Below the pieces are notes generated by a model that was given only the letters and a program-made list of their open reading frames with translations, ran no database searches and was not told where the DNA came from. Below, one piece after another: positions 1 through 64,000 of a stretch of 64,000 nucleotides of DNA (position 1 is its first letter; the number at the start of each line of letters is the position of its first letter). Origin of the DNA: Cladorhizidae sp. MBARI D1340-BT2. Its lineage: Eukaryota > Porifera > Demospongiae > Poecilosclerida > Cladorhizidae. The translations under genes and the position numbers were made by a program. The stretch covers positions 1-64,000 of the forward strand of contig JAQNBH010000212.1 in NCBI GenBank assembly GCA_028752905.1. The letters run 5' to 3'.

Positions 1-1600
1 GGGGACAGGTACATTAACGTCTGGTTGTATGGGTATTAGTCTGGTTGTCTCTTGTTGGATTTTTTATGAGACAATTTTAAACTCTTCAGTTACTTATATA
101 AAGTTATGAAAATGGTTTGATTCAGAGTTGTTAACTACTTATTTTGGGTTACAATTTGATAGTTTAACTTCAATTATGTTGGTAGTAATAACTAGTATAT
201 CGGTATTAGTTCATATTTATTCAACTGGGTATATGTCGGATGATCCTCATCTGCCCCGATTTATGTCTTATTTATCACTATTTACTTTTTTAATGATGGT
301 ATTAGTCACAAGTGATAATTATGCTCAGTTATTTATAGGTTGAGAAGGAGTGGGGCTATGTTCTTATCTTTTAATAAATTTCTGGTTTACAAGGATAAAA
401 GCGAATAAGGGGGCAATGAAGGCTATGTTAATAAATCGAGTGGGGGATATAGGGGTAGTTTTGGCTATGATAAAGATTATTGAAGAGTTTGGGGGCTTAG
501 AATATTCAACTGTTGGTAGTGTTTTGAGTGGCCCGGGCTATATTAATAAAGAAGGTCTTACTATAATTAGTTTATTATTATTTTTCGGGGGAGTGGGGAA
601 ATCGGCTCAATTAGGTTTACATACTTGATTACCAGATGCGATGGAAGGTCCTACCCCGGTATCTGCCTTAATACATGCGGCGACAATGGTAACGGCTGGG
701 GTTTTTTTAATAATAAGATCCGCCCCTTTTTTTGAGGGTTCTCCTTTAGCTTTAACTATAATAACTATAGGGGGGGCTTTAACGGCTCTTTTTGCGGCTA
801 GTGTGGGGATAGTTCAAAATGATTTGAAAAAAGTAATTGCTTATTCTACTTGTAGTCAATTAGGTTATATGGTAATGATCTGTGGTTTATCGAGTTATTA
901 TGTTAGTTTATTTCATTTGGTGAATCATGCTTTTTTTAAGGCTTTATTGTTTTTAAGTGCTGGCTCTGTTATACATGCCATTAGTGATGAGCAGGATATG
1001 CGAAAAATGGGGGGGGTGATAAAATCTCTTCCCTTTTCTTATGTTATGATTTTAATCGGGTCCTTATCATTAATCGGGTTCCCTTATTTAACAGGGTTTT
1101 ATTCAAAAGATTTGATATTGGAGTTAGTGTATGAGAAGCATTGTATGGTTTTTGCTTATTGATTGGGTAGTTTTTCTGTTTTATTAACTGCGTTTTATTC
1201 CATAAGGTTAATTTATTTAACATTTATAACTAATACCAATTCGAAAAAGGAGGTATTTATAAAAGTGCATGAGTCAAATTGAAACATAATTTTTCCTTTA
1301 CTTTTATTGGCCTTTGGAAGTATATTTGTGGGGTATTTGGGAAAAGAGTTAATATTATCCAATATTATTTCTCCAATAATACCTAGTTATGTTAAAATGG
1401 CGCCTTTATTATTAAGTTTGTTAGGGGCATTATTGGCTCTTGTGGTATATGATCGCGGCTTAGTTGAGAAGGGAGGGTTGTATTTAAATTATGTCTTTTA
1501 TACTTTTTTTAATTCGGGTTGACAGTTTAATTATGTTATAAATCATTTTTTGACTTTTAATTTGTTAAATTTGGGTATAAGATGTAAGAAAGTTAAATAG
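1..1600 (+). pseudogene. nad5: nad5, 5' end outside the window, short form with altered C-terminus
   Basis: NADH dehydrogenase subunit 5, a proton-pumping inner-membrane subunit of complex I. The window opens 76 nt inside the gene (compare the full copy at 4817). The reading frame, with TGA as Trp, runs through the antiporter-like core ([18 protein letters not shown]) and matches the intact gene to 1575. There it leaves nad5 and reads on for seven foreign codons (IRCKKVK) to TAG at 1598-1600. The whole short form would have 558 residues instead of 613. It lacks the last ~60 residues, including the [12 protein letters not shown] stretch. The 15 bp at 1569-1583 equal the 3' end of nad4 (9927-9941), so the tail may have come from there. 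Either a recombinant pseudogene or a shortened variant; the full copies make the first more likely. Confidence 0.85.
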
Positions 1601-1618
1601 ATTAGTATAATTTTGTAG

Positions 1619-2407
1619 ATGGCTGAGCAAGTATACCATCCTTATCACTTAGTAGATCCTAGTCCATGGCCTTTAATAGGGGCATGTGGGTCATTTTTTA
1701 CTACGGTGGGCGGGGTAACGTATTTTCATTATAGTCAAACTGGATTATTAGTAATGGGTTTAGTTATAATAATGGGGACAATGGTAGCGTGATGGCGGGA
1801 TGTGATTAGAGAGGGAACTTACCAAGGATGTCACACATATATTGTGAGGCAAGGTTTAAAATATGGTATGCTTTTATTTATACTATCAGAGGTTTGTTTA
1901 TTTTTCTCTTTTTTTTGAGGGTTTTTTCACAGTAGTTTGTCACCCACTATTCAAATAGGGGGGGTTTGACCGCCCGTGGGGGTCAACCCATTAGACCCTT
2001 TTTCTATTCCTTTATTAAATACGGCTATTTTACTAAGTTCTGGTGCAACGGTGACCTGGGCCCACCATGGGCTAATTAGTGGCAAAAGAAAAGAAGCCCG
2101 AAAAAGTTTGGCTTTAACAGTTATATTGGGGTTAATATTTACTAGTTTACAGGGAATGGAGTATTATTACGCCCCTTTTACAATATCTGATTCAGTGTAT
2201 GGTTCTACTTTTTTTATCACAACAGGGGCGCACGGCGGGCACGTTTTAATTGGGAGTACGTTTTTACTAATTTGCTTATATAGATTAATAAATTTTCAAT
2301 TTACCAAACATCATTATTTGGGGTTTGAGGCAGCGGCTTGATATTGGCATTTTGTTGATGTGGTGTGATTATTTTTGTTTATTTTTATGTATTGATGAGG
2401 TGCCTAA
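1619..2407 (+). CDS. cox3: cytochrome c oxidase subunit III
   Basis: Core subunit of complex IV in the inner membrane. ATG to TAA gives 262 residues, the usual size, with seven hydrophobic spans. It starts [18 protein letters not shown] and carries the conserved HHGLI and [22 protein letters not shown]-terminal pattern, with several Trp encoded by TGA. The 43-nt leader contains 15 bp matching the nad4 3' end (1569-1583) and 16 bp (1595-1610) identical to the trnG-rnl boundary (53729-53744). Directly downstream the sequence drops into the middle of cox1 at 2422. Identical copies start at 31190, 37221 and 50148; cox3 always follows the same nad5-derived junction, so no alternative upstream context is visible. 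Confidence 0.97.
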
Positions 2408-2421
2408 AGCAAGACCATGAT

Positions 2422-3507
<1,086 letters not shown>

Positions 3508-4789: not shown

Positions 4790-4843
4790 CAATAAGTCTA
4801 TATATCTAGGAGATCGATGTATATATTAGTATTATTTCTGCCT
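4790..4843 (+). repeat. 54-bp hub repeat at the nad5 start
   Basis: 27 nt of leader plus the first 27 coding nt of nad5. It recurs before every unit (11279, 17768, 23507, 29468, 35499, 40392, 44353, 49176). The left neighbour is trnN or nad2, the right neighbour nad5 or trnE, and all four combinations occur. In the nad2 version the last codons and stop of nad2 lie inside it. Confidence 0.9.
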
Positions 4844-6658
4844 TTATTAAGTGCAATAGTATCTGGATTATTTGGAAGGAAAATAGGGAGAAAGGGGACA
4901 GGTACATTAACGTCTGGTTGTATGGGTATTAGTCTGGTTGTCTCTTGTTGGATTTTTTATGAGACAATTTTAAACTCTTCAGTTACTTATATAAAGTTAT
5001 GAAAATGGTTTGATTCAGAGTTGTTAACTACTTATTTTGGGTTACAATTTGATAGTTTAACTTCAATTATGTTGGTAGTAATAACTAGTATATCGGTATT
5101 AGTTCATATTTATTCAACTGGGTATATGTCGGATGATCCTCATCTGCCCCGATTTATGTCTTATTTATCACTATTTACTTTTTTAATGATGGTATTAGTC
5201 ACAAGTGATAATTATGCTCAGTTATTTATAGGTTGAGAAGGAGTGGGGCTATGTTCTTATCTTTTAATAAATTTCTGGTTTACAAGGATAAAAGCGAATA
5301 AGGGGGCAATGAAGGCTATGTTAATAAATCGAGTGGGGGATATAGGGGTAGTTTTGGCTATGATAAAGATTATTGAAGAGTTTGGGGGCTTAGAATATTC
5401 AACTGTTGGTAGTGTTTTGAGTGGCCCGGGCTATATTAATAAAGAAGGTCTTACTATAATTAGTTTATTATTATTTTTCGGGGGAGTGGGGAAATCGGCT
5501 CAATTAGGTTTACATACTTGATTACCAGATGCGATGGAAGGTCCTACCCCGGTATCTGCCTTAATACATGCGGCGACAATGGTAACGGCTGGGGTTTTTT
5601 TAATAATAAGATCCGCCCCTTTTTTTGAGGGTTCTCCTTTAGCTTTAACTATAATAACTATAGGGGGGGCTTTAACGGCTCTTTTTGCGGCTAGTGTGGG
5701 GATAGTTCAAAATGATTTGAAAAAAGTAATTGCTTATTCTACTTGTAGTCAATTAGGTTATATGGTAATGATCTGTGGTTTATCGAGTTATTATGTTAGT
5801 TTATTTCATTTGGTGAATCATGCTTTTTTTAAGGCTTTATTGTTTTTAAGTGCTGGCTCTGTTATACATGCCATTAGTGATGAGCAGGATATGCGAAAAA
5901 TGGGGGGGGTGATAAAATCTCTTCCCTTTTCTTATGTTATGATTTTAATCGGGTCCTTATCATTAATCGGGTTCCCTTATTTAACAGGGTTTTATTCAAA
6001 AGATTTGATATTGGAGTTAGTGTATGAGAAGCATTGTATGGTTTTTGCTTATTGATTGGGTAGTTTTTCTGTTTTATTAACTGCGTTTTATTCCATAAGG
6101 TTAATTTATTTAACATTTATAACTAATACCAATTCGAAAAAGGAGGTATTTATAAAAGTGCATGAGTCAAATTGAAACATAATTTTTCCTTTACTTTTAT
6201 TGGCCTTTGGAAGTATATTTGTGGGGTATTTGGGAAAAGAGTTAATATTATCCAATATTATTTCTCCAATAATACCTAGTTATGTTAAAATGGCGCCTTT
6301 ATTATTAAGTTTGTTAGGGGCATTATTGGCTCTTGTGGTATATGATCGCGGCTTAGTTGAGAAGGGAGGGTTGTATTTAAATTATGTCTTTTATACTTTT
6401 TTTAATTCGGGTTGACAGTTTAATTATGTTATAAATCATTTTTTGACTTTTAATTTGTTAAATTTGGGGCATTTGGTTACTTATCGGGTGATTGATAGAG
6501 GATTATTAGAAATAATGGGGCCTAAGGGGATATCTCGGATATTGATAAGATTAACTCAAAACATCAGTAATTTACAATCTGGGATGGTGTTTAATTATGT
6601 TTTAATAACGGTCATATTTACGGGTTTATTTCTTTCTGGGGTGGAACATTATTATTAA
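4817..6658 (+). CDS. nad5: NADH dehydrogenase subunit 5, full length
   Basis: Complex I membrane-arm proton pump. 613 residues from ATG to TAA, the expected length, with ~15 hydrophobic spans; many TGA codons are read as Trp. The conserved core is at residues ~238-263 ([20 protein letters not shown]). The gene normally ends in SGVEHYY; its final codons and stop lie in a 35-bp copy of the nad2 5' end (6643-6677). The only intact form is this one; identical copies start at 11306, 23534 and 44380. Here it follows trnN and precedes trnT-cox2. Confidence 0.97.
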
Positions 6659-8031: not shown

Positions 8032-8400
8032 ATGATAAAAAGTTATAGAAAAGAGAATCCGGTTTTTTTTCTAATAAATAATTGGTTTATTGATCTTCCG
8101 GCCCCCTCGAATTTAAATTATTTCTGGAATTTGGGTTCTTTATTGGCGTTTTGTTTAATTATTCAAATGATTAGCGGAATTTTTTTAGCCATGCATTATT
8201 GTTCAGATATAGAGTTAGCTTTTTCATCTGTGGTGCATATTACTCGTGATATAAATTATGGGTTTGTTTTAAGGTATTTACATGCTAATGGGGCATCTAT
8301 GTTTTTTTTATGTGTTTATTTTCATATAGGCCGGGGCATGTATTATGGTAGTTATACAAAAGTGATAGTTTGAAATGTGGGCTCCCGGGTCTTACTATAA
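8032..8400 (+). pseudogene. cob: cob 5' fragment (117 codons plus a foreign tail)
   Basis: Starts at the same ATG as the intact gene at 60192 and matches it to 8381. It keeps the first pair of haem ligands (His84, His98). It then reads five foreign codons to TAA at 8398-8400, so the second ligand pair, the PEWY quinol-site loop and five or more helices are missing. Cut at the 68-bp cob repeat, which here continues into the nad4 side. Confidence 0.9.
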
Positions 8401-9945: not shown

Positions 9946-11298
9946 ATGGCAGGAACATTATTATTAAGTTTGTCAGTGTTAATATTAGTAGTTTATGGTT
10001 TAAGAAGATGGGTGCTAAGGGTTACTATTATGGTGATGGCATTAGTGGGCTTTACTAGTATTTGGTTTGAGGGGTGTTTTCTGCCTATGGGGGGGTATGG
10101 GTTATTAACCAGTAGTTGAGTGGACGTATCTAGGGGGATGCTTGTAATTGCTTGCTTATCATTATTATTAGTATATAGTTCGAAAAATACAGATCCGGAG
10201 GAGGGGGATTCTTGGATTTTGTTGGTGTTAATGGTATTATTGGGGTCTTTACTATTAGTTTCTTCGGTAAATTGGGTTTGCATATATTTAGCTTTAGAGT
10301 TACAAACTTTAATACTTTTTATTTTAGTGGCAAAAACAAATAGTGCCTATGGTACAGAAGCAGGATTAAAGTATTTGGTTTTAGGGGCGATTTCTTCTGG
10401 GTTATTTTTATTTGGGTGTGCTTTATTATACGGGGCCTCTGGGGAGACGAGCGCTCAAGGGATTAATTCAGTATTAATGGGGCAGGGGGGGAAAATATTT
10501 CTGACCATATCGTTATTATTTAAATTATCGGCGGCCCCCTTTCATATGTGGGCTCCCGATGTGTATGAGGGCGCGCCTACCATAAGTACCGCTCTATTGG
10601 TTATAATACCCAAAATAGGGGTTTTTACAGTATTAGTACAAGTGGGTTTAGTAAGTAATGTGATTCTTTTTTGTGGGGTTATGTCTATTATTTATGGAGC
10701 AGCGGGGGCTTTAAATCAAACTAAAATGAAGCGTTTATTGGCCTATAGTGGGGTCGGGCATATGGGGTTTATTCTTTTAGGGGTTGGAATCGGGTCTTTT
10801 GAAAGTATTCAGGCCAGTTTAATATACATGATAATATATACTGTAATGTCAGTGTGTGTGTTTTCAGTGCTTTTATCTTTAAAATTAACTCGGGTTCTTA
10901 TAATTGAGGCTAGTAGTTTATCTAGGGATAATTTGGTAATAGCTTTTACATTAGGTTTAACGTTTTTATCTACTGCGGGGATCCCGCCTTTAGCGGGGTT
11001 TTTAGGTAAATGGTGAGTATTATTATCGGGGATGTCCAGTGGCTATTTTTTAATTTGTCTGGCCGTAGTAATGGCCTCCGTAATAGGTGGGGTTTATTAT
11101 GTGAGGATGGTTCAAATAATATATTTTACAAACTATTTTTTGTTAACTTGGCAAAAAGTTCTAAATAGATCAGATGTAATAAAATTTAGGAAGTCAATCC
11201 CTTTGGGGGGTGCTATTTTTATTATTCTGTTTTTAATGGTGTCACCCAATTGAATGTTACAGATGGCCCATGATGCTACAATAAGTCTATATATCTAG
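9946..11298 (+). CDS. nad2: NADH dehydrogenase subunit 2
   Basis: Complex I membrane subunit of 450 residues with ~14 spans. FHMWAPDVYEGAPT near residues 200-213 is the family signature, followed by the LLAYSGVGHMGF helix. The frame is continuous if TGA is Trp. The last codons (TISLYI-TAG) lie in the hub repeat shared with the trnN side, 7 nt before the nad5 ATG. Four pieces of this gene reappear at junctions: 9952-9986 (nad5 end), 10048-10060 (trnT), 10556-10568 (cob/trnS) and 18 bp ending near 10095 (nad5 stub/trnE). Confidence 0.96.
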
Positions 11299-11305
11299 GA
11301 GATCG

Positions 11306-13147
11306 ATGTATATATTAGTATTATTTCTGCCTTTATTAAGTGCAATAGTATCTGGATTATTTGGAAGGAAAATAGGGAGAAAGGGGACAGGTACATTAAC
11401 GTCTGGTTGTATGGGTATTAGTCTGGTTGTCTCTTGTTGGATTTTTTATGAGACAATTTTAAACTCTTCAGTTACTTATATAAAGTTATGAAAATGGTTT
11501 GATTCAGAGTTGTTAACTACTTATTTTGGGTTACAATTTGATAGTTTAACTTCAATTATGTTGGTAGTAATAACTAGTATATCGGTATTAGTTCATATTT
11601 ATTCAACTGGGTATATGTCGGATGATCCTCATCTGCCCCGATTTATGTCTTATTTATCACTATTTACTTTTTTAATGATGGTATTAGTCACAAGTGATAA
11701 TTATGCTCAGTTATTTATAGGTTGAGAAGGAGTGGGGCTATGTTCTTATCTTTTAATAAATTTCTGGTTTACAAGGATAAAAGCGAATAAGGGGGCAATG
11801 AAGGCTATGTTAATAAATCGAGTGGGGGATATAGGGGTAGTTTTGGCTATGATAAAGATTATTGAAGAGTTTGGGGGCTTAGAATATTCAACTGTTGGTA
11901 GTGTTTTGAGTGGCCCGGGCTATATTAATAAAGAAGGTCTTACTATAATTAGTTTATTATTATTTTTCGGGGGAGTGGGGAAATCGGCTCAATTAGGTTT
12001 ACATACTTGATTACCAGATGCGATGGAAGGTCCTACCCCGGTATCTGCCTTAATACATGCGGCGACAATGGTAACGGCTGGGGTTTTTTTAATAATAAGA
12101 TCCGCCCCTTTTTTTGAGGGTTCTCCTTTAGCTTTAACTATAATAACTATAGGGGGGGCTTTAACGGCTCTTTTTGCGGCTAGTGTGGGGATAGTTCAAA
12201 ATGATTTGAAAAAAGTAATTGCTTATTCTACTTGTAGTCAATTAGGTTATATGGTAATGATCTGTGGTTTATCGAGTTATTATGTTAGTTTATTTCATTT
12301 GGTGAATCATGCTTTTTTTAAGGCTTTATTGTTTTTAAGTGCTGGCTCTGTTATACATGCCATTAGTGATGAGCAGGATATGCGAAAAATGGGGGGGGTG
12401 ATAAAATCTCTTCCCTTTTCTTATGTTATGATTTTAATCGGGTCCTTATCATTAATCGGGTTCCCTTATTTAACAGGGTTTTATTCAAAAGATTTGATAT
12501 TGGAGTTAGTGTATGAGAAGCATTGTATGGTTTTTGCTTATTGATTGGGTAGTTTTTCTGTTTTATTAACTGCGTTTTATTCCATAAGGTTAATTTATTT
12601 AACATTTATAACTAATACCAATTCGAAAAAGGAGGTATTTATAAAAGTGCATGAGTCAAATTGAAACATAATTTTTCCTTTACTTTTATTGGCCTTTGGA
12701 AGTATATTTGTGGGGTATTTGGGAAAAGAGTTAATATTATCCAATATTATTTCTCCAATAATACCTAGTTATGTTAAAATGGCGCCTTTATTATTAAGTT
12801 TGTTAGGGGCATTATTGGCTCTTGTGGTATATGATCGCGGCTTAGTTGAGAAGGGAGGGTTGTATTTAAATTATGTCTTTTATACTTTTTTTAATTCGGG
12901 TTGACAGTTTAATTATGTTATAAATCATTTTTTGACTTTTAATTTGTTAAATTTGGGGCATTTGGTTACTTATCGGGTGATTGATAGAGGATTATTAGAA
13001 ATAATGGGGCCTAAGGGGATATCTCGGATATTGATAAGATTAACTCAAAACATCAGTAATTTACAATCTGGGATGGTGTTTAATTATGTTTTAATAACGG
13101 TCATATTTACGGGTTTATTTCTTTCTGGGGTGGAACATTATTATTAA
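11306..13147 (+). CDS. nad5: NADH dehydrogenase subunit 5, full-length copy
   Basis: Same 613-residue protein as at 4817, here behind nad2 rather than trnN. It opens the second of two tandem 6489-bp units. Confidence 0.97.
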
Positions 13148-14520: not shown

Positions 14521-14889
14521 ATGATAAAAAGTTATAGAAAAGAGAATCCGGTTTTTTTTCTAATAAATAATTGGTTTATTGATCTTCCGGCCCCCTCGAA
14601 TTTAAATTATTTCTGGAATTTGGGTTCTTTATTGGCGTTTTGTTTAATTATTCAAATGATTAGCGGAATTTTTTTAGCCATGCATTATTGTTCAGATATA
14701 GAGTTAGCTTTTTCATCTGTGGTGCATATTACTCGTGATATAAATTATGGGTTTGTTTTAAGGTATTTACATGCTAATGGGGCATCTATGTTTTTTTTAT
14801 GTGTTTATTTTCATATAGGCCGGGGCATGTATTATGGTAGTTATACAAAAGTGATAGTTTGAAATGTGGGCTCCCGGGTCTTACTATAA
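14521..14889 (+). pseudogene. cob: cob 5' fragment, copy
   Basis: 117 cob codons then the foreign tail and TAA, as at 8032. Confidence 0.9.
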
Positions 14890-16434: not shown

Positions 16435-17787
16435 ATGGCAGGAACATTATTATTAAGTTTGTCAGTGTTAATATTAGTAGTTTATGGTTTAAGAAGATGG
16501 GTGCTAAGGGTTACTATTATGGTGATGGCATTAGTGGGCTTTACTAGTATTTGGTTTGAGGGGTGTTTTCTGCCTATGGGGGGGTATGGGTTATTAACCA
16601 GTAGTTGAGTGGACGTATCTAGGGGGATGCTTGTAATTGCTTGCTTATCATTATTATTAGTATATAGTTCGAAAAATACAGATCCGGAGGAGGGGGATTC
16701 TTGGATTTTGTTGGTGTTAATGGTATTATTGGGGTCTTTACTATTAGTTTCTTCGGTAAATTGGGTTTGCATATATTTAGCTTTAGAGTTACAAACTTTA
16801 ATACTTTTTATTTTAGTGGCAAAAACAAATAGTGCCTATGGTACAGAAGCAGGATTAAAGTATTTGGTTTTAGGGGCGATTTCTTCTGGGTTATTTTTAT
16901 TTGGGTGTGCTTTATTATACGGGGCCTCTGGGGAGACGAGCGCTCAAGGGATTAATTCAGTATTAATGGGGCAGGGGGGGAAAATATTTCTGACCATATC
17001 GTTATTATTTAAATTATCGGCGGCCCCCTTTCATATGTGGGCTCCCGATGTGTATGAGGGCGCGCCTACCATAAGTACCGCTCTATTGGTTATAATACCC
17101 AAAATAGGGGTTTTTACAGTATTAGTACAAGTGGGTTTAGTAAGTAATGTGATTCTTTTTTGTGGGGTTATGTCTATTATTTATGGAGCAGCGGGGGCTT
17201 TAAATCAAACTAAAATGAAGCGTTTATTGGCCTATAGTGGGGTCGGGCATATGGGGTTTATTCTTTTAGGGGTTGGAATCGGGTCTTTTGAAAGTATTCA
17301 GGCCAGTTTAATATACATGATAATATATACTGTAATGTCAGTGTGTGTGTTTTCAGTGCTTTTATCTTTAAAATTAACTCGGGTTCTTATAATTGAGGCT
17401 AGTAGTTTATCTAGGGATAATTTGGTAATAGCTTTTACATTAGGTTTAACGTTTTTATCTACTGCGGGGATCCCGCCTTTAGCGGGGTTTTTAGGTAAAT
17501 GGTGAGTATTATTATCGGGGATGTCCAGTGGCTATTTTTTAATTTGTCTGGCCGTAGTAATGGCCTCCGTAATAGGTGGGGTTTATTATGTGAGGATGGT
17601 TCAAATAATATATTTTACAAACTATTTTTTGTTAACTTGGCAAAAAGTTCTAAATAGATCAGATGTAATAAAATTTAGGAAGTCAATCCCTTTGGGGGGT
17701 GCTATTTTTATTATTCTGTTTTTAATGGTGTCACCCAATTGAATGTTACAGATGGCCCATGATGCTACAATAAGTCTATATATCTAG
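16435..17787 (+). CDS. nad2: NADH dehydrogenase subunit 2, copy
   Basis: 450 residues. Unlike the first copy, the hub behind it leads to trnE instead of nad5. Confidence 0.96.
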
Positions 17788-17794
17788 GAGATCG

Positions 17795-17821
17795 ATGTAT
17801 ATATTAGTATTATTTCTGCCT
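17795..17821 (+). pseudogene. nad5: nad5 stub: first nine codons joined to trnE
   Basis: Only the hub part of nad5 is present. From 17813 to 17830 the sequence is an 18-bp copy of nad2 (tttctgcctat plus seven G), extended to nine G before trnE. The resulting 17-codon ORF stops inside trnE. Confidence 0.85.
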
Positions 17822-18453: not shown

Positions 18454-18886
18454 GGCAATAACTTTTTTATATGACCGATCCAATATTATTTCTCCAATAA
18501 TACCTAGTTATGTTAAAATGGCGCCTTTATTATTAAGTTTGTTAGGGGCATTATTGGCTCTTGTGGTATATGATCGCGGCTTAGTTGAGAAGGGAGGGTT
18601 GTATTTAAATTATGTCTTTTATACTTTTTTTAATTCGGGTTGACAGTTTAATTATGTTATAAATCATTTTTTGACTTTTAATTTGTTAAATTTGGGGCAT
18701 TTGGTTACTTATCGGGTGATTGATAGAGGATTATTAGAAATAATGGGGCCTAAGGGGATATCTCGGATATTGATAAGATTAACTCAAAACATCAGTAATT
18801 TACAATCTGGGATGGTGTTTAATTATGTTTTAATAACGGTCATATTTACGGGTTTATTTCTTTCTGGGGTGGAACATTATTATTAA
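18410..18886 (+). pseudogene. nad5: nad5 3' fragment with a chimeric N-terminus
   Basis: From 18478 the sequence equals nad5 from position 6250 to its stop. The nad5 frame stays open upstream to an ATG at 18410 inside nad6. This gives a 158-residue chimera: out-of-frame nad6, AITFLYDR from nad4 in its own frame, then the C-terminal nad5 region. It lacks the antiporter core, so complex I function is not expected. Confidence 0.85.
18454..18479 (+). repeat. 26-bp nad4 patch between nad6 and a nad5 piece
   Basis: Matches nad4 9503-9528 with one difference (18460 A against T). Read in the nad4 frame it still spells AITFLYDR, the change being ATT to ATA, both Ile. Also at 41078-41103 and 49862-49887. 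Confidence 0.85.
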
Positions 18887-23526: not shown

Positions 23527-23533
23527 GAGATCG

Positions 23534-41445: not shown

Positions 41446-41518
41446 GGAAGAGGTGGCACAAGGGTAATGCACCTGTCTTGAAAATAGAAAATGTCGGTTC
41501 GATTCCGGCCCTCTTCTG
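41446..41518 (+). tRNA. trnS: tRNA-Ser (UGA), the only intact copy
   Basis: Acceptor ggaagag/ctcttct, a D arm (ggcacaagggtaatgc), an anticodon loop cttgaaa with TGA, and a T arm cggttcgattccg. All other copies carry only its last 44 nt. Directly upstream of nad4. Confidence 0.88.
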
Positions 41519-44372: not shown

Positions 44373-44379
44373 GAGATCG

Positions 44380-46221: not shown

Positions 46222-46243
46222 GTTTGTCAGTGTTAATATTCCC

Positions 46244-46324: not shown

Positions 46325-47893
<1,569 letters not shown>

Positions 47894-48719: not shown

Positions 48720-48789
48720 AAAAGGGGGTTTATTTCTTTCTGGGGTGGAACATGTGGGAGGCGTCAAGAGGCCCTTAATTATGTTATAA

Positions 48790-49074
<285 letters not shown>

Positions 49075-49171: not shown

Positions 49172-49202
49172 GATGCAATAAGTCTATATATCTAGGAGAT
49201 CG

Positions 49203-49229
49203 ATGTATATATTAGTATTATTTCTGCCT
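49203..49229 (+). pseudogene. nad5: nad5 stub, copy
   Basis: trnN-hub-trnE path, as at 40419. Confidence 0.85.
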
Positions 49230-49861: not shown

Positions 49862-50129
49862 GGCAATAACTTTTTTATATGACCGATCCAATATTATTTC
49901 TCCAATAATACCTAGTTATGTTAAAATGGCGCCTTTATTATTAAGTTTGTTAGGGGCATTATTGGCTCTTGTGGTATATGATCGCGGCTTAGTTGAGAAG
50001 GGAGGGTTGTATTTAAATTATGTCTTTTATACTTTTTTTAATTCGGGTTGACAGTTTAATTATGTTATAAATCATTTTTTGACTTTTAATTTGTTAAATT
50101 TGGGTATAAGATGTAAGAAAGTTAAATAG
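49818..50129 (+). pseudogene. nad5: 219-bp nad5 piece in a chimeric ORF, before cox3
   Basis: 49886-50104 equal nad5 6250-6468, the smallest form of the duplicated piece. The chimeric frame from ATG 49818 to TAG gives 103 residues. nad6-[nad5 piece]-cox3 is probably the parental arrangement from which the short nad5 form arose by recombination. Confidence 0.87.
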
Positions 50130-50950: not shown

Positions 50951-51185
50951 GGGGCAATGAATTTTATAACTACAATAATAAATATGAGGGCGCCTGGGAT
51001 AACCATCGATAGAATGCCATTATTTGTTTGATCAATTTTAGTGACGGCAATTTTATTATTATTATCCTTACCTGTATTAGCTGGGGGGATTACGATGTTA
51101 TTAACCGATCGAAATTTTAACACCGCTTTTTTTGATCCTGCGGGAGGAGGGGATCCGATTTTATATCAACATTTATTTTGGTTTT
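50951..51185 (+). pseudogene. cox1: 235-bp internal cox1 piece, copy
   Basis: Between cox3 and trnK, as at 31993. Confidence 0.88.
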
Positions 51186-51259: not shown

Positions 51260-51469
51260 ATGCCACATTTAGATGTAGTTTCTTATTTTACACAATATAT
51301 GTGAGCAGTATTCGCTTTATTGTCCTTATTTTTTATAATGGGTTTAGGTATTTTGCCGGTTTTACAGCGACAATTAGTAGCGCGAGTTAGGGGTTCGCGT
51401 GGATTTCGAGCCGAAAAGGCCAAAAGCCCGGCCCCCGGTGAAATAATTACGTATTTACTCCAACTATAA
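51260..51469 (+). CDS. atp8: ATP synthase F0 subunit 8, copy
   Basis: 69 residues, unchanged. Confidence 0.9.
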
Positions 51470-51491
51470 ATGGGGTCCGAGGTGATAACCG

Positions 51492-52355
51492 GTTTATTTT
51501 CATATAGGCCGGGGCATGTATTATGGTAGTTATACAAAAGTGATAGTTTGAAATGTGGGAGTAGTTTTATTTTTCTTAATGATACTGACGGCTTTTATAG
51601 GTTATGTATTGCCTTGAGGGCAAATGTCTTTTTGAGCCGCTACAGTAATAACAAATTTATTATCGGCTATTCCCTATGTAGGGGAAGATATTGTTAGGTG
51701 GGTTTGAGGGGGTTTTAGTGTGTCAAATGCTACATTAAATAGGTTTTTAAGTTTACATTATTTATTTCCATTTGTATTAGTTGCCTTAGCCATTATACAT
51801 TTGATAGCTTTACACGAGGATGGTTCAAATAATCCGATTGGGGTAAAATCCGATCCGGATAAGGGTTCATTTCATTATTATTATGTTTTAAAGGATATAT
51901 ATGGGGCAGGAATATTGGGTGTATTATTGTGTATAATAGTATTTTATTTTCCTTATATATTGGGGGATGTTGAGAATTTCAAACAGGCGAATCCTTTAGT
52001 GACTCCCGCTCATATAAAACCTGAGTGATATTTTTTATTTGTTTATGCGATACTGCGTTCTATTCCAAATAAATTCGGGGGGGTTGTAGCCTTAGTTTTT
52101 AGTATACTGATTTTATTGTTTTTGCCCTATTTACATAAAAATAGATTTAAAGGGATAAGATTTAGACCTTCAAGTCAGGGACTATTTTGGTTTTTAGTAG
52201 GAGATTTTTTATTATTAATTTGAGTTGGCGGGCAACCTGTAGAAGAACCTTATATATTGATAGGACAAATAGTTTCGTTATTTTATTTTATCTATTTTTT
52301 AATTTTAACCCCTTTAATCGGAAATTTGGAAAATAAATTATTAAAATTAGTATAA
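51492..52355 (+). pseudogene. cob: cob 3' fragment behind atp8
   Basis: Equals intact cob from 60474 to its stop: His98, the second ligand pair and PEWY are kept, but the first ~94 residues are missing. It is a recombinant in which the 68-bp cob piece behind atp8 runs on into the real cob 3' end and trnP-rns. Confidence 0.9.
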
Positions 52356-56627: not shown

Positions 56628-57599
56628 ATGATTGTAGTTTTAATTAAAGTGGCATGTATTTTGGTGCCTTTATTGGTTTCAATCGCTTATTTGACATTAG
56701 GCGAGAGAAAGGTTTTGGGTTATATTCAAGGGAGAAAGGGGCCAAATGTAGTGGGGGTGTACGGGGTATTACAGCCTTTAGTTGATGGGGTCAAGTTGTT
56801 TACTAAAGAAATGATTTTTCCAAATCAGGCCAACCTATATATATACATATTCTCCCCTATTATTTCTTTAACTTTGGGTTTTATCGCTTGAGGGGCAATC
56901 CCGTATGGGGAGGGTGTGGTGTTGAGCGATATAGGGGTCGGGATTTTATATTTATTTGCGGTTTCTTCTATTAGTGTTTATGCGGTATTAATGTCGGGTT
57001 GGTCGAGTAATTCAAAATATGCTTTTTTAGGGGCGATCCGGGGGGGCGCCCAAATGATAAGTTATGAGGTGTCAATTGGGGTAATTATAATTTCTGTTGT
57101 TTTATTTGCGGGATCTTTAAATTTAATGGAGATGACAGTATCTCAGAATAAAATGTGATATATAATACCATTATTTCCAGCTACAATAATGTTTTTTGTG
57201 TCTGCTTTAGCCGAAACTAATAGAGTACCATTTGATTTAACAGAAGGGGAGTCTGAATTAGTCTCAGGGTTTAATGTGGAATACTCGAGCATGTCATTTG
57301 CCTTATTTTTTTTAGCAGAGTATTGTCATATAATTTTAATGTCTGCTTTAGGGGTGGTTCTTTTTTTGGGGGGTGGCGCTCAAGTTCCCTGAAATGTGCT
57401 GGCCTGTAGTGGGGTATTTGGAATAAAAATTACTTTTTTACTTTTTCTATTTATTTGGATAAGGGGGAGTTATCCTAGAATTAGATATGATCAGTTAATG
57501 TCATTATTATGAAAATCTTATTTACCTTTGAGTTTTGGGTTATTGGGGTTTGTTTCTGGGGGCTTAGTAGGGTTGAAGGGCCTCCCCGGGCTATATTAA
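56628..57599 (+). CDS. nad1: NADH dehydrogenase subunit 1
   Basis: Complex I subunit at the quinone channel, 323 residues and eight spans. Signatures: [20 protein letters not shown] (N-terminal) and [21 protein letters not shown] (residues ~196-216), the quinone-site loop. ATG 56628 lies just behind trnC; an upstream in-frame start is inside the tRNA. The last five codons and the TAA belong to a segment identical to nad5 (from 57585), so the terminus GLY-stop is borrowed. Single copy in the window. Confidence 0.96.
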
Positions 57600-58818
57600 T
57601 AAAGAAGGTCTTACTATAATTAGTTTATTATTATTTTTCGGGGGAGTGGGGAAATCGGCTCAATTAGGTTTACATACTTGATTACCAGATGCGATGGAAG
57701 GTCCTACCCCGGTATCTGCCTTAATACATGCGGCGACAATGGTAACGGCTGGGGTTTTTTTAATAATAAGATCCGCCCCTTTTTTTGAGGGTTCTCCTTT
57801 AGCTTTAACTATAATAACTATAGGGGGGGCTTTAACGGCTCTTTTTGCGGCTAGTGTGGGGATAGTTCAAAATGATTTGAAAAAAGTAATTGCTTATTCT
57901 ACTTGTAGTCAATTAGGTTATATGGTAATGATCTGTGGTTTATCGAGTTATTATGTTAGTTTATTTCATTTGGTGAATCATGCTTTTTTTAAGGCTTTAT
58001 TGTTTTTAAGTGCTGGCTCTGTTATACATGCCATTAGTGATGAGCAGGATATGCGAAAAATGGGGGGGGTGATAAAATCTCTTCCCTTTTCTTATGTTAT
58101 GATTTTAATCGGGTCCTTATCATTAATCGGGTTCCCTTATTTAACAGGGTTTTATTCAAAAGATTTGATATTGGAGTTAGTGTATGAGAAGCATTGTATG
58201 GTTTTTGCTTATTGATTGGGTAGTTTTTCTGTTTTATTAACTGCGTTTTATTCCATAAGGTTAATTTATTTAACATTTATAACTAATACCAATTCGAAAA
58301 AGGAGGTATTTATAAAAGTGCATGAGTCAAATTGAAACATAATTTTTCCTTTACTTTTATTGGCCTTTGGAAGTATATTTGTGGGGTATTTGGGAAAAGA
58401 GTTAATATTATCCAATATTATTTCTCCAATAATACCTAGTTATGTTAAAATGGCGCCTTTATTATTAAGTTTGTTAGGGGCATTATTGGCTCTTGTGGTA
58501 TATGATCGCGGCTTAGTTGAGAAGGGAGGGTTGTATTTAAATTATGTCTTTTATACTTTTTTTAATTCGGGTTGACAGTTTAATTATGTTATAAATCATT
58601 TTTTGACTTTTAATTTGTTAAATTTGGGGCATTTGGTTACTTATCGGGTGATTGATAGAGGATTATTAGAAATAATGGGGCCTAAGGGGATATCTCGGAT
58701 ATTGATAAGATTAACTCAAAACATCAGTAATTTACAATCTGGGATGGTGTTTAATTATGTTTTAATAACGGTCATATTTACGGGTTTATTTCTTTCTGGG
58801 GTGGAACATTATTATTAA
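57585..58818 (+). pseudogene. nad5: nad5 3' two-thirds, behind nad1
   Basis: Equals nad5 5425-6658 (codon ~203 to stop) with no upstream start. The first in-frame Met is at 57694. Together with trnT and the first 17 nt of cox2 it forms a 1354-bp repeat (57585-58938) that also precedes cox1. Confidence 0.9.
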
Positions 58819-58840
58819 GTTTGTCAGTGTTAATATTCCC

Positions 58841-58911
58841 GCCTCTATAGTTTAATAGAAAAACATTTGTCTTGTAAACAAAAATTATAAGTGCGATTCT
58901 TGTTGGAGGCT
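58841..58911 (+). tRNA. trnT: tRNA-Thr (UGU), copy
   Basis: Same as 6681-6751. Confidence 0.92.
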
Positions 58912-58921
58912 TTACTAGTAC

Positions 58922-59644
58922 ATGATTTTATGATTAAGGTTAATAAAGAAGGATATTCCGGAGCCCTGACAATTAGGGTTTCAGGATGCAGGAAGTTTAG
59001 CTATGGAGGAAATAATTTTCTTTCATGATGAGATTATGTATTTTTTAGTTTTGATAACTATTTTGGTTTTATGAGTAATAATCCGGGCCTTAATAAGTGG
59101 GTATTATCATAAATATTTATTTGAGGGAGTATTAATAGAAGTGATATGAACTTTGCTTCCAGCGGGAGTATTAATTTTTTTAGCCTTTCCTTCTTTAAAA
59201 TTACTATATTTAATGGACGAAGTAATGAAGCCCGGGGTAACAATTAAAATAGTAGGGCATCAGTGGTATTGGTTTTACGAGTATTCTGATTATGGGCCAG
59301 AAACTATAGAGTTTGATTCTTATATGATTCCGACCTCGGATTTAAAGGAGGGAGAGCAAAGGTTATTAGAGGTAGATAATAGAGTAAAAGCCCCAGTACA
59401 GACAGAAGTAAGATTATTAGTGACTGGGGAAGATGTGTTACACTCATTTGCAGTGCCATCTTTATCTCTAAAAGTAGACGCCGTGCCTGGACGATTAAAT
59501 CAAACTAGTTTTATGATAAAGAGGGAGGGGGTGTTTTATGGGCAATGTTCAGAGATCTGTGGGGCAAATCACTCTTTTATGCCCATTGTAGTAGAAGGGG
59601 TTTCTTTAGAGAATTATATTAGTTGAGTTTCAAATTATAATTAA
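58922..59644 (+). CDS. cox2: cytochrome c oxidase subunit II, copy
   Basis: 240 residues, unchanged. Confidence 0.96.
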
Positions 59645-60191: not shown

Positions 60192-61337
60192 ATGATAAAA
60201 AGTTATAGAAAAGAGAATCCGGTTTTTTTTCTAATAAATAATTGGTTTATTGATCTTCCGGCCCCCTCGAATTTAAATTATTTCTGGAATTTGGGTTCTT
60301 TATTGGCGTTTTGTTTAATTATTCAAATGATTAGCGGAATTTTTTTAGCCATGCATTATTGTTCAGATATAGAGTTAGCTTTTTCATCTGTGGTGCATAT
60401 TACTCGTGATATAAATTATGGGTTTGTTTTAAGGTATTTACATGCTAATGGGGCATCTATGTTTTTTTTATGTGTTTATTTTCATATAGGCCGGGGCATG
60501 TATTATGGTAGTTATACAAAAGTGATAGTTTGAAATGTGGGAGTAGTTTTATTTTTCTTAATGATACTGACGGCTTTTATAGGTTATGTATTGCCTTGAG
60601 GGCAAATGTCTTTTTGAGCCGCTACAGTAATAACAAATTTATTATCGGCTATTCCCTATGTAGGGGAAGATATTGTTAGGTGGGTTTGAGGGGGTTTTAG
60701 TGTGTCAAATGCTACATTAAATAGGTTTTTAAGTTTACATTATTTATTTCCATTTGTATTAGTTGCCTTAGCCATTATACATTTGATAGCTTTACACGAG
60801 GATGGTTCAAATAATCCGATTGGGGTAAAATCCGATCCGGATAAGGGTTCATTTCATTATTATTATGTTTTAAAGGATATATATGGGGCAGGAATATTGG
60901 GTGTATTATTGTGTATAATAGTATTTTATTTTCCTTATATATTGGGGGATGTTGAGAATTTCAAACAGGCGAATCCTTTAGTGACTCCCGCTCATATAAA
61001 ACCTGAGTGATATTTTTTATTTGTTTATGCGATACTGCGTTCTATTCCAAATAAATTCGGGGGGGTTGTAGCCTTAGTTTTTAGTATACTGATTTTATTG
61101 TTTTTGCCCTATTTACATAAAAATAGATTTAAAGGGATAAGATTTAGACCTTCAAGTCAGGGACTATTTTGGTTTTTAGTAGGAGATTTTTTATTATTAA
61201 TTTGAGTTGGCGGGCAACCTGTAGAAGAACCTTATATATTGATAGGACAAATAGTTTCGTTATTTTATTTTATCTATTTTTTAATTTTAACCCCTTTAAT
61301 CGGAAATTTGGAAAATAAATTATTAAAATTAGTATAA
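60192..61337 (+). CDS. cob: cytochrome b, the only intact copy
   Basis: Catalytic subunit of complex III, 381 residues, eight helices. Haem ligands His84/His98 and His183/His197 are at the expected spacing; the quinol-site loop PEWY is at KPEWYFLF. TGA codes Trp in WGQ and W-rich loops. ATG 60192 ([19 protein letters not shown]) fits the family start; an earlier in-frame start lies inside trnW. Ends TAA, 16 nt before trnP. Order trnW-cob-trnP-rns is likely parental. Confidence 0.97.
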
Positions 61338-61353: not shown

Positions 61354-61424
61354 CAAAATATATATTAACGGTAAATTACCTGAATTGGGATCAGGAGATA
61401 TAAGTTTGAATCTTATTATTTTGA
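61354..61424 (+). tRNA. trnP: tRNA-Pro (UGG), copy
   Basis: Same as 52372-52442. Confidence 0.9.
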
Positions 61425-62638
61425 AGGAGTCCTTTGATTTTGGGGAGGATATAAAGCGAGCGGCCCTTATAATACATGTTAGGGTTAAAATCCCCGTATA
61501 AGTGAGTAATTTCTTAGAGCTAGCTAATGAAACTAGAGGGAATTTTTATTGCATAGTAAATTGATGGCTCGGAATCGTATTAGGCTTTTAGAGTTATATC
61601 TAAGCAGAGATGCGTAGTTGAGAGACCACGCTTCCACTGAAACAAGGGGGAGTCTTGTTTAGAGGCTGCAGTAAAGAATATTGTGCAATGTATGAAAGTA
61701 TGACACAGAGATGTCGCAAATAAAGCTGTCTAATATACGTGCCAGCAGACGCGGTTAAACGTAAGGCTTAAGTTTTTTTCATAAAAGGCGTAAAGGGTAG
61801 GTAAGTGTGAGATGGGATAAGGAGGTTTTAAAGGGGTAAATGGAATGATTTATGAAAGAATGAAAAGTTGGGATATAAGTTGGAATATCAAGGATGTAGG
61901 TAAATTACTAGTTAAAACCTAAAAGCTGATATACGAAAGCTGGGACAGCAAACAGGGGGGAGTCCTGGTAGTCCTTGCTGTAAACTATGAATTTTAGATT
62001 TTTTAAGAATCTATGATAACTTAAGAAAATTTGGCCTGGAGACTATGATCGCAAGATTAAAATTTAAAAAATTTGGCGGTTCATTGACGTCATTAGAGAA
62101 GCGTGTGGTTTAATTCGATGATCCGCGAATAATTTTACCAAAACTGGAAGGAGATGTGGGGGGGGATTTAAGTAACTACATAGGCCCGGTATTGCATGGC
62201 CGTCGGCAGTTTGTGTTTTGAAAGAAATAGAATAGGCTCAGCCCTAGGTTATTATTAAGTTAATAATAAGGGAGAAGGTCAGGTCGTTATGTTCCTAATG
62301 TTTTGGGCTATACATGCGCTATATTTATGTATAAATAAAAAAGGTTGGTTGAAAAGTAAAAAATCGGAATAGTCTTTGAAAGAGAGAGTATGAAGAAGGA
62401 TTTAATAGTAATTGGAGAGTAGGGCGCTCTGGTGAATAATTATTCAGTGTTCGTACAAATCGCCCGTCACCTTAACTAAGTAAACGTTTTTTAAGGATAA
62501 AGTTATAAGATAAGAGGAAAAACTTTAGGAGAATAAGTAAAAGTAAAGGCGTATTCTGGGGCTTTATATCATGAAATATTTATGAGGTCGAGAAAGTCGT
62601 AACAGAGTGAGAGGATTGGAAAATGTTCTTGGATTAAT
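61425..62638 (+). rRNA. rns: small-subunit ribosomal RNA, copy
   Basis: Second full copy; same landmarks as 52443-53656, 8982 bp further on. Confidence 0.93.
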
Positions 62639-62710
62639 GTATGTATAATTTATCGGGTAAAATAAGTGATTTCCAATCATTAATAACGAGTTCGAGTCTC
62701 GTTATGTACA
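62639..62710 (+). tRNA. trnG: tRNA-Gly (UCC), copy
   Basis: Same as 53657-53728. Confidence 0.9.
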
Positions 62711-64000
62711 AAATAGATTAGTATAAACAAGTAAAGAATGGATAGTTAGGATGTTATAATGGGGCGTTATATACGAAATCTTTGAGGAAAAAACTCAGGG
62801 TCCCCGAAAATAAGGGTTTTAGGGACTGAAGCATCTAAGTACTAAAGGTAAAAATCAAGCGAAATTCTGTGAGTAGCGGCGAGCGAAAGTAGAAGGGTGT
62901 CATTTGAGAGTATCAAAGAGGGTAACAGGCCCGTGAGAATGGCAATGATTATATTCAGAGCATATAAATATATATGTTTAAAGAGTAGAATTATTTGAAG
63001 ATAGGTATTCCATATATCTAAATTTCAAAATTATAACATACCGAGAGTGCATAAGTACTGTGAGGGAAAACATAAGATCCATCTAACCCCAGTTTAGGAT
63101 CTTGAAATTAGTTACTTACAAGCAGACAATATTTGTCGTACCTTTTGAATAATGGGTTCGTGAGATAAGGATTTGGCAAATTTCAATTAGTAAATATAGA
63201 TGTAGTGAAAACAAGTTTTAATAATTAAGCATTAGTCAAATAGAGCCCGAAACCAAGTGATCTAGCCATGGGCAGTTTGAAGCCCTTTAATAGAGGGGAG
63301 GGAGGAACGAACCGGTAATTGTGGCAAAAATTTCGGAGGACCTGTGGTTAGGGGTAAAAAGCCAATCGAACTTGGAAATAGCTGGTTTTCTGCGAAAATT
63401 ATTTTAGTAGTGCGTCATTAGTTTTAATTTTTACAGGGTAAAGCACTGAATATAAATATCTATAAGGTATTTTTAATCAAACTATGAAAGTGTCAAAATA
63501 AAAATGATAGACAGACAATGGGCGAGAAGGTTCATTGTTTAAAAGGGAACCCCCTAGACCAGAAGTTAAGGTTATTAAAACATAATTAAGTGTGAAAGGA
63601 GGTTATTAAGTGTGATAATAAGTAAGTAGGCCTAGAGTCAGCCATCTTTGGGAGAGGGCGTAGCAGCTCACTTAACGAATTAATAGGTTCTAAAAATCTG
63701 GGTGGTTTAAGTTAATAAAGGGACCAAAACTCTGGATACTGTATTATGGTAGTAGAACGTTCTGTAAGTGATTATTACGAAAGTATGTCTGAAGTGATAA
63801 TGCGAACATGAGTAAAAAATAATGTGAGAATCATTATTCATGGCCCAAGGTTACCAATTAATGATTTTTGATATTGGGTTATGCAGTCCTTAAGAAATGA
63901 AATGTTATAGGATAATGGGTAAAAATAATAAATGAAAAAATTATTTTAATGGAGGCTGTACTAAAACTAACACAAGTGGGCATTAAGTGATGGTAGAATT
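62711..64000 (+). rRNA. rnl: large-subunit ribosomal RNA, 5' half, cut by the window end
   Basis: Matches the first ~1290 nt of 53729-56234 and runs off the window. Confidence 0.92.

What the first reader, a model, noticed from the sequence alone, without database searches (positions are those of the whole stretch)
1..64000. Five repeats with multiple left and right neighbours, in nearly all combinations
Hub (54 bp): trnN or nad2 on the left, nad5 or trnE on the right; all four seen (4817; 11306; 17795; 40419). cox1 235-bp: left cox1 5' or cox3, right cox1 3' or trnK; all four (46325; 25479; 2422; 31993). cob 68-bp: left cob 5' or atp8, right cob 3' or trnS joint; all four (60192; 8032; 51492; 26503). 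nad5 219-bp: left nad5 or nad6, right nad5 end, cox3 or trnS; five of six. nad5-trnT 1354-bp: left nad5 or nad1, right cox1 or cox2; three of four. This is what reciprocal recombination at direct repeats yields, rare in animal mtDNA. The same picture would come from an assembler guessing through repeats.
Basis: partly seen in the sequence, partly recalled or inferred. Interest (0 to 1): 0.9.

Follow-up and report, generated by a model that had tools for sequence, protein, structure and literature searches.

The report
Sponge mitochondrial genome that constantly reshuffles
A sponge's mitochondrial DNA appears in its genome assembly as the same few gene blocks joined in nearly every possible order at short identical repeats, likely through real recombination in the animal, because the longer the repeat the more freely the blocks are swapped.

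Summary
The window is the first 64 kb of a 139,618-bp mitochondrial contig (C124) of a poecilosclerid sponge assembly (857 Mb, 325 contigs); C125-C128 share its sequence at 100%. In the 301,397 bp I read (C124, C125, most of C126) there are only 18,272 distinct 25-mers and no variant between copies. Gene blocks are re-joined at direct repeats. At repeats of 68-235 bp, left and right neighbours are independent (Fisher p 0.43-0.72). At 54 bp they are partly linked (8 of 43 passes recombinant, p=0.00018); at 46, 42 and 40 bp 2 of 23, 1 of 22 and 1 of 37 are recombinant; at 17 two-place repeats of 16-35 bp 0 of 597. An assembler guessing through repeats should give a step, not a slope, so I favour recombination in the animal. 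The repeats are gene pieces copied, in direct orientation, into spacers. The joins seen allow no genome with each block once and all genes intact. One earlier report (Mycale escarlatei) notes alternative arrangements without mechanism. Raw reads, the decisive test, were not available.

The parts
4790..4843 (+). 54-bp hub (nad2 3' end + nad5 start), trnN-hub-nad5: recombinant (native/recombinant labels here are inferred from gene integrity)
11279..11332 (+). 54-bp hub, nad2-hub-nad5: native form
17768..17821 (+). 54-bp hub, nad2-hub-trnE: recombinant (reciprocal)
23507..23560 (+). 54-bp hub, nad2-hub-nad5
29468..29521 (+). 54-bp hub, nad2-hub-nad5
35499..35552 (+). 54-bp hub, nad2-hub-nad5
40392..40445 (+). 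54-bp hub, trnN-hub-trnE: other native form
44353..44406 (+). 54-bp hub, nad2-hub-nad5
49176..49229 (+). 54-bp hub, trnN-hub-trnE
2422..2656 (+). 235-bp cox1 repeat, cox3 left, cox1 3' right: recombinant
25962..26196 (+). 235-bp cox1 repeat, cox1 5' left, trnK right: recombinant, truncates cox1
31993..32227 (+). 235-bp cox1 repeat, cox3 left, trnK right: ectopic copy in the cox3-trnK spacer
38024..38258 (+). 235-bp cox1 repeat, cox3 left, cox1 3' right
46808..47042 (+). 235-bp cox1 repeat inside intact cox1 (46325-47893)
50951..51185 (+). 235-bp cox1 repeat, cox3-trnK spacer copy
8314..8381 (+). 68-bp cob repeat, cob 5' left, trnS joint right: truncates cob
14803..14870 (+). 68-bp cob repeat, cob 5' left, trnS joint right
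20542..20609 (+). 68-bp cob repeat, cob 5' left, trnS joint right
26503..26570 (+). 68-bp cob repeat, atp8 left, trnS joint right: ectopic spacer copy
32534..32601 (+). 68-bp cob repeat, atp8 left, trnS joint right
51492..51559 (+). 68-bp cob repeat, atp8 left, cob 3' right
60474..60541 (+). 68-bp cob repeat inside intact cob
1357..1575 (+). 219-bp nad5 repeat, nad5 left, cox3 right
6250..6468 (+). 219-bp nad5 repeat inside intact nad5
12739..12957 (+). 219-bp nad5 repeat inside intact nad5
18478..18696 (+). 219-bp nad5 repeat, nad6 left, nad5 end right
24967..25185 (+). 219-bp nad5 repeat inside intact nad5
30928..31146 (+). 219-bp nad5 repeat, nad5 left, cox3 right
36959..37177 (+). 219-bp nad5 repeat, nad5 left, cox3 right
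41102..41320 (+). 219-bp nad5 repeat (336 bp with its extension to 41437), nad6 left, trnS right
45813..46031 (+). 219-bp nad5 repeat inside intact nad5 (44380-46221)
49886..50104 (+). 219-bp nad5 repeat, nad6 left, cox3 right (spacer copy)
58410..58628 (+). 219-bp nad5 repeat within the nad1-joined stretch
57585..58938 (+). Its first 40 bp (57585-57624) is the likely exchange point, copied after nad1 elsewhere (C124:66567-66606); single recombinant form
41446..41518 (+). the only intact trnS(uga) in the window; in the other five passes only its 3' part is kept (from 8401, 14890, 20629, 26590, 32621)
48726..48795 (+). atp6-atp9 spacer made of gene pieces: nad5 28 bp, orf213 28 bp, nad5 21 bp; 48754-48795 is the 42-bp repeat
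48796..48841 (+). 46-bp leader and start of atp9, repeated before orf213 (C124:66894); recombinants on C126 and, reciprocal, on C127
49869..49887 (+). 19-bp nad4 piece after nad6, overlapping the nad5 219-bp piece by 2 bp
51447..51494 (+). atp6 19-bp and atp9 27-bp pieces at and after the end of atp8; the atp9 piece overlaps the cob 68-bp piece by 3 bp
46206..46240 (+). 35-bp nad2 piece at the nad5 end; no recombinant in 58 passes

Best explanation
The assembly of this sponge holds its mitochondrial DNA as a few gene blocks joined in nearly all combinations at short identical direct repeats, and these joins were likely made by homologous recombination inside the mitochondria, with an efficiency that appears to climb from none at 35 bp of identity to free exchange at 68 bp. 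Shown from the sequence: the repeats, their exact identity, the joins, their counts and the dependence of the counts on repeat length. Inferred: that each join was carried by single molecules (no reads seen). The repeats are pieces of genes that lie a second time in the spacers, in the same orientation; I infer that rare microhomology-guided template switching put them there (of eight places where pieces follow one another, six overlap by 2-11 bp, one abuts, one has a 2-bp gap; and one nad4-rnl join over 6 bp was found). Pieces of about 40 bp or more then act as crossover sites. Because the repeats are direct, exchange would split and fuse molecules but not invert them, and all genes stay on one strand. 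The likely outcome is a population of overlapping molecules without one complete chromosome, many carrying cut cob, cox1 or nad5, kept working by the intact copies. I suppose that a check on short-repeat recombination, such as plant MSH1, is absent; this was not tested.
For: Length series over 301,397 bp (C124 and C125 whole, C126:1-120000 of 161,210), recombinant passes of all passes: 235 bp 10/25, 219 bp 21/44, 166 bp 11/40, 68 bp 12/29 (0.81-1.11 of the number expected if free; Fisher p 0.43-0.72); 54 bp 8/43 (0.40; p=0.00018); 46 bp 2/23 (0.19); 42 bp 1/22 (0.10); 40 bp 1/37 (0.07); 17 two-place repeats of 16-35 bp 0/597. Reciprocal products 4 and 4 at the 54-bp hub; the missing reciprocal of the 46-bp exchange was on C127. 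Partial replication on unfetched sequence (end of C126, C127, C128): nad2-nad5 22, trnN-trnE 21, nad2-trnE 3; the fourth class could not be counted, but of the values tried (0 to 20) all keep the association significant (p<=0.0015). Choices at successive repeats show no dependence (p>0.2) except in three comparisons that end at the 54-bp hub (p 0.0036-0.03). No variant: 33 non-terminal unitigs account for all 18,567 distinct 51-mers. A 6-bp nad4-rnl join.
Against: No reads: a 64-kb path need not be one molecule, and the longest exact repeat with differing flanks in the 301 kb is 17,652 bp, so long-range order may be the assembler's. Each length is represented by one or a few loci, which also differ in place and in effect on genes; passes are not independent events. 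Rows left out of the curve: nested repeats of 359, 336, 187, 70, 49 and 21 bp and the 15-bp rows, because they lie inside longer shared repeats or are at the noise limit, and two three-place rows of 18 and 16 bp. Of these the 49-bp row ([[33,11],[7,1]], p=0.66), the 21-bp row (8 of 66) and one 15-bp row (9 of 42, inside the 46- and 32-bp repeats) would not fit a naive reading. Block counts are uneven (rRNA blocks 10 passes, two of them cut by contig ends; nad5 5' block 26). Exact hub copies on other contigs show native joins only in the three classes counted (19, 4, 0). Chance extension of neighbouring pieces would give an overlap of about 1 bp (my estimate), so the 2-3 bp overlaps prove little. 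Absence of MSH1-like control and the origin of the spacers are inference.
Confidence: 0.82

Rival explanations
1. Assembly artefact: one stable genome with repeats, and the assembler chose paths through them at random.
Against: A fixed overlap or k-mer limit predicts no recombinants below it and independence above it. Seen: 12 recombinants at 40-54 bp together with strong linkage there (p 8e-8 to 1.8e-4), and independence at 68 bp and more. Repeats of 54-235 bp are shorter than long reads, and a short-read assembler would hardly print the same 875-bp block 28 times in three contigs (general knowledge; the technology used is not known to me).
Confidence: 0.1
2. Nuclear copies: C124-C128 are recent nuclear arrays of mtDNA, shuffled in the nucleus.
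For: Exact hub copies exist on other contigs: C1, C2 (7 in about 51 kb), C5, C7, C9, C10, C13, C14, C44 and C158, on both strands.
Against: C124 and C125 hold no other sequence from end to end (terminal unitigs add no 51-mer); no variant in 301 kb; all on one strand (0 of 18,272 25-mers has its reverse complement there). The spacing of the C2 copies (five of six gaps 4.6-7.4 kb, one 20 kb) itself looks like shuffled units rather than a regular circle, so it may record shuffled mtDNA (inference; that stretch was not read).
Confidence: 0.03
3. Library chimeras: strand switching during amplification joined repeats in the tube.
For: Such chimeras also rise with repeat length (general knowledge).
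Against: At 68-235 bp the joins are as frequent as free exchange allows (28-48% of passes recombinant); such a rate in the tube seems implausible (judgement). Two other poecilosclerid assemblies report ordinary mitochondrial genomes of 19.53 and 19.34 kb (PMC12166358, PMC13087572, abstracts in the listing).
Confidence: 0.03
4. Several fixed chromosomes without ongoing recombination.
For: Two circles could carry most genes of the window intact (cox2-nad3-cob-rRNAs-nad1 and nad4-nad2-nad5-cox1-atp6-atp9-nad6-cox3-atp8), in line with the 8,982-bp offset of 51492 and 60474.
Against: Fixed chromosomes would tie left to right neighbours; no tie is detected at 68 bp and above, and all four combinations exist at 54, 68, 219 and 235 bp.
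Confidence: 0.05

Closest known systems
Repeat-mediated recombination of plant mitochondrial genomes (PMC6385970, passages read)
   Same: Exact repeats, alternative neighbour combinations, no single master molecule needed, cut genes among the products.
   Different: There the largest repeats recombine constantly; in wild-type Arabidopsis crossover products at repeats of up to 556 bp (Col-0) or 204 bp (Ws) were undetectable by PCR, and msh1 mutants used repeats down to 70 bp but none of 50 bp or less. Here 68-235 bp are free and 40-54 bp already recombine, in about 18 kb of distinct sequence.
Mycale escarlatei mtDNA (PMC10695373, section 18 read in full)
   Same: Poecilosclerid sponge; [quoted passage not shown] similar preliminary data from other Mycale.
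   Different: That section gives no repeats, joins, frequencies or mechanism. Whether this window is Mycale could not be tested.
Lycopodina hypogea mtDNA (PMC11572364, abstract read)
   Same: Poecilosclerid; rearranged, thought multipartite, nad4L not on the main chromosome.
   Different: Large intergenic regions described as without vestiges of former mitochondrial sequences or pseudogenes; here most spacer bases examined are gene pieces.
Dispersed repeats of sponge mtDNA, incl. hairpin elements (PMC2444032 passages; PMC2800124 abstract)
   Same: 20-100 bp repeats in spacers and some genes.
   Different: The 22 genomes of PMC2444032 map as circles, with repeats over 100 bp only in Vaceletia; recombination between copies is not described in what I read.

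Membership tests
Plant-type repeat-mediated mtDNA recombination (works like) | all four flank combinations at a repeat, in reciprocal pairs | tested here: met
   54, 68, 219 and 235 bp: all four; reciprocals 4 and 4 at the hub
Plant-type repeat-mediated mtDNA recombination (works like) | recombination rises with repeat length | tested here: met
Plant-type repeat-mediated mtDNA recombination (works like) | joins present on single molecules (long reads, blots) | not testable with these tools
Plant-type repeat-mediated mtDNA recombination (works like) | repeats under a few hundred bp silent in the wild type | tested here: not met
   68-235 bp show free exchange here; plant rule from PMC6385970
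Demosponge (Poecilosclerida) mtDNA | code 4, atp9 present, genes on one strand | tested here: met
   all tRNAs +; atp9 by Pfam
Demosponge (Poecilosclerida) mtDNA | groups with named poecilosclerids | tested here: met
   nad2 tree of 23 rows, clade of 11 with Iotrochota, Negombata, Crella, support 100/100; long branch
Demosponge (Poecilosclerida) mtDNA | 14 proteins, 24-25 tRNAs, one circle | tested here: inconclusive
   nad4L not found and 14 tRNA kinds in 301 kb; C127, C128 and the end of C126 not read
Mycale genus | Mycale marker sequences | not tested
   no named Mycale sequence met
Fixed multi-chromosome animal mtDNA (lice, some nematodes) | a closed set of circles | tested here: inconclusive
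   neighbour independence at 68-235 bp speaks against it, but no circles could be observed
Nuclear mtDNA array | nuclear flanks and decay | tested here: not met
   none in C124 and C125, whole; other mt contigs not read to both ends

The most novel reading that the evidence does not exclude
An animal mitochondrial genome that exists only as a freely recombining population: no chromosome carries every block once with all genes intact, homologous exchange needs about 40 bp and is unrestrained by 68 bp, and the genome makes its own crossover sites by copying pieces of its genes into its spacers.
Probability: 0.6. Interest if true: 0.86.

Novelty: new variant of a known kind. Interest (0 to 1): 0.76.

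Why it matters
Animal mtDNA is usually treated as one small circle that hardly recombines. Here an animal mitochondrion appears to recombine more readily at short repeats than a wild-type plant does, and one assembly yields a length-response curve for mitochondrial homologous recombination (threshold near 40 bp, saturation by 68 bp). That makes an open question testable: whether animal mitochondria have the machinery, what normally restrains it, and how a genome with most cob 5' halves cut off from their 3' half (13 of 19 in 301 kb) is kept working. It also warns that gene orders and single-circle maps of such sponges may be one form out of many.

Tried and rejected
Table 5 for translation: rejected, AGA/AGG fall at cox1 positions that I recall as conserved Arg. 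Haplosclerida from the cox1 cluster name: dropped after nad2. Single-copy set of chromosomes with all genes intact: rejected on the joins seen. trnK-atp8 is followed by the cob repeat in 10 of 10 passes; that repeat exits to the cut-trnS joint and the start of nad4, or to the cob 3' end; so trnK-atp8, intact cob and intact trnS together need either the start of nad4 or the cob 3'-rRNA block twice. The 1354-bp repeat as a crossover site: rejected. nad4L: tblastn with the first 130 residues (nad4L part and cox1 start) of two database proteins matched only at the cox1 part at E<=0.01; the Pfam search of the whole genome did not complete. Orphan ORF: no hit in Pfam, PHROGs, PDB or the 5.8-billion protein set; structure model unusable (pLDDT 32). 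Related loci: genome contigs gave 80 listed loci, all titled as bacteria, and viral contigs 5; none used further. Gene names: ten proteins were checked with Pfam (nad4 only as the general Proton_antipo_M family), cox1 and nad2 by protein search; atp8 rests on my recognition.

The printed table was cut in the middle (rows of roughly 3.3-5.8 kb not seen); rows up to 360 bp were printed again.

Full report
WHAT IT IS. The window is mitochondrial DNA of a sponge. The genes found lie on the + strand and read with genetic code 4. Pfam confirms nad1, nad3, nad5, nad6, cox2, cox3, cob, atp6, atp9 and a nad4-type protein; cox1 and nad2 were confirmed by protein search; atp8 is my recognition. Both rRNA genes are present, and tRNAs for Q, N, T, W, E, K, S(uga), P, G, M and C (11 kinds). 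A nad2 tree of 23 rows puts it inside a fully supported clade of 11 rows with the named poecilosclerids Iotrochota, Negombata and Crella, on a long branch. The species is not known. The window is bases 1-64000 of contig C124 (139,618 bp) of an 857-Mb assembly of 325 contigs; stretches of C125, C126, C127 and C128 match it at 100%.

CHECK OF THE OBSERVATION. All copies are identical. In the window 17,317 distinct 25-mers make up 64 kb; in the 301,397 bp that I could read (C124, C125, C126:1-120000) there are 18,272. A compacted graph at k=51 has 39 unitigs, six of them contig ends; the 33 others account for all 18,567 distinct 51-mers, so both ends of C124 and C125 hold no other sequence, and no two unitigs share both neighbours as a variant bubble would.

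LEFT AND RIGHT NEIGHBOURS. In the 301 kb, passes without 12 bp of flank left out: cox1 235 bp, cox1 5' to cox1 3' 9, to trnK 4; cox3 to cox1 3' 6, to trnK 6. cob 68 bp: cob 5' to trnS joint 13, to cob 3' 6; atp8 to trnS joint 6, to cob 3' 4. nad5 219 bp: nad5 to nad5 20, to cox3 8; nad6 to nad5 13, to cox3 3. These are what free exchange gives (Fisher p 0.43, 0.70, 0.72). Hub 54 bp: nad2 to nad5 23, to trnE 4; trnN to nad5 4, to trnE 12, clearly linked (p=0.00018). (One search lists 22 and 3 where one search lists 23 and 4, because the typed paths dropped two hub passes at contig ends.) For the 46-, 42- and 40-bp repeats there are 2 of 23, 1 of 22 and 1 of 37 recombinants. For the 17 two-place repeats of 16-35 bp there are none in 597 passes. 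Observed over expected-if-free is 0 (35 bp and less), 0.07, 0.10, 0.19, 0.40 (54 bp), 0.92 (68 bp), 0.90 (166 bp), 1.11 (219 bp), 0.81 (235 bp); Spearman over the eight lengths from 40 bp is 0.83 (p=0.010). Rows left out: repeats nested in longer shared ones (359, 336, 187, 70, 49, 21 bp), the 15-bp rows, and three-place rows of 18 and 16 bp. The 49-bp row shows no linkage (p=0.66), the 21-bp row 8 of 66 and one 15-bp row 9 of 42 apparent recombinants; all three lie inside longer repeats of the series.

REPLICATION. On the sequence I could not fetch (C126 beyond 120 kb, C127, C128), exact pattern counts give nad2-hub-nad5 22, trnN-hub-trnE 21, nad2-hub-trnE 3. The trnN-hub-nad5 count did not complete; at each value tried from 0 to 20 the link stays significant. 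Locus L090 on C127 holds the reciprocal of the 46-bp exchange that the 301 kb lacked. Against this, exact hub copies on other contigs show native joins only in the classes counted: 19, 4, and 0 of nad2-hub-trnE.

WHY NOT AN ASSEMBLER. An assembler limited by overlap or k-mer length resolves repeats below the limit and guesses above it. No limit fits: one at or below 40 bp contradicts the linkage at 40-54 bp, and one above 54 bp contradicts the 12 recombinants found there. I did not see reads, so this is inference. The longest exact stretch with different flanks is 7,018 bp in the window and 17,652 bp in the 301 kb; long-range order is thus less certain than single joins.

WHERE THE REPEATS COME FROM. 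Each repeat has one copy in its gene and another in a spacer: cox1 235 bp between cox3 and trnK, cob 68 bp after atp8, the nad2-nad5 boundary between trnN and trnE, nad5 219 bp after nad6, nad5 40 bp after nad1. Smaller pieces fill much of the rest: of 3,073 noncoding bases examined (runs of 8 bp or more in one tour), 2,489 are exact copies of 16 bp or more of genes; leaving out the 1,241 bp that are only the nad1-nad5 recombinant, 1,248 of 1,832 (68%); leaving out also the 336 bp by which the nad6 spacer appears a second time, 912 of 1,496 (61%). At eight places where pieces follow one another the overlaps are 2, 3, 9, 0, 7, 2 and 11 bp and in one case there is a 2-bp gap; overlaps of 2-3 bp are near what chance extension gives. 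Repeats are direct: 23 direct pairs against 0 inverted at 20 bp or more in the tour, 28 against 2 at 18 bp or more, and no 25-mer of the 301 kb has its reverse complement there. One nad4-rnl join over 6 bp (C126:44033-44038) looks like the kind of rare event that would start such a piece. That template switching made the spacers is my inference.

THE 1354-BP CASE. In C124 at 66.5-66.6 kb nad1 runs into 40 bp of nad5, 25 bp of nad2, trnL(uag), trnY, trnD and an ORF. The window's nad1-nad5-trnT-cox2 form is 1 of 10 nad1 passes.

CONSEQUENCES. In the 301 kb, cob 5' halves lead into the cob 3' end in 6 of 19 passes (two of the six run to a contig end), cox1 5' halves into cox1 3' in 9 of 13, nad5 5' blocks run through to trnT in 15 of 26, and trnS is intact in 8 of 27. 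With the joins seen, trnK-atp8, an intact cob and an intact trnS cannot all be carried with every block once.

WHAT IS KNOWN. PMC10695373, section 18 (read in full) reports for Mycale escarlatei several alternative arrangements for most genes and a likely multi-chromosomal architecture. PMC6385970 (passages) gives the plant rule against which the short repeats here stand out. Two poecilosclerid genome notes report mitochondrial genomes of 19.53 and 19.34 kb (abstracts in listing). In the listings of my ten searches of the held library I recognised no paper with a repeat-length series for animal mtDNA; subscription papers and preprints are not held. In one search none of the 15 listed papers held the phrase repeat-mediated recombination.

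VERDICT. Real sequence feature, most likely in-vivo recombination; a new variant of a known kind. The new parts are the length dependence in an animal and the gene-piece spacers as crossover sites.

Noticed in passing
C124:66936-67577 (L094:2936-3577), outside the window: A 213-aa ORF (code 4) between trnD and a nad5 fragment, sharing a 46-bp leader and start with atp9; G+C 47% against 30-38% for the 11 other genes measured; no relative in Pfam, PHROGs, PDB or the 5.8-billion protein set.
   Followed up: partly
C124, C125, C126:1-120000: nad4L was not found and only 14 tRNA kinds were found in 301 kb, where demosponges usually have 24-25 tRNA genes (usual number from PMC10695373); the rest may be on C127/C128, elsewhere or lost.
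   Followed up: partly
G000 C1, C2:12311081-12362219, C5, C7, C9, C10, C13, C14, C44, C158: Exact copies of the hub on other contigs, both strands, seven within about 51 kb on C2: probable nuclear insertions, perhaps of shuffled mtDNA.
   Followed up: no
56359-56442: 31-bp tandem repeat, 2.7 copies, in the trnM-trnC spacer, the only tandem array reported in the window; a spacer with no gene piece of 16 bp or more.
   Followed up: no
C126:43989-44082: Single nad4-rnl fusion over 6 bp of microhomology.
   Followed up: yes
47926-47998 and 47940-48719: The trnQ call overlaps the start of the longest atp6 ORF; the true atp6 start is probably downstream.
   Followed up: no
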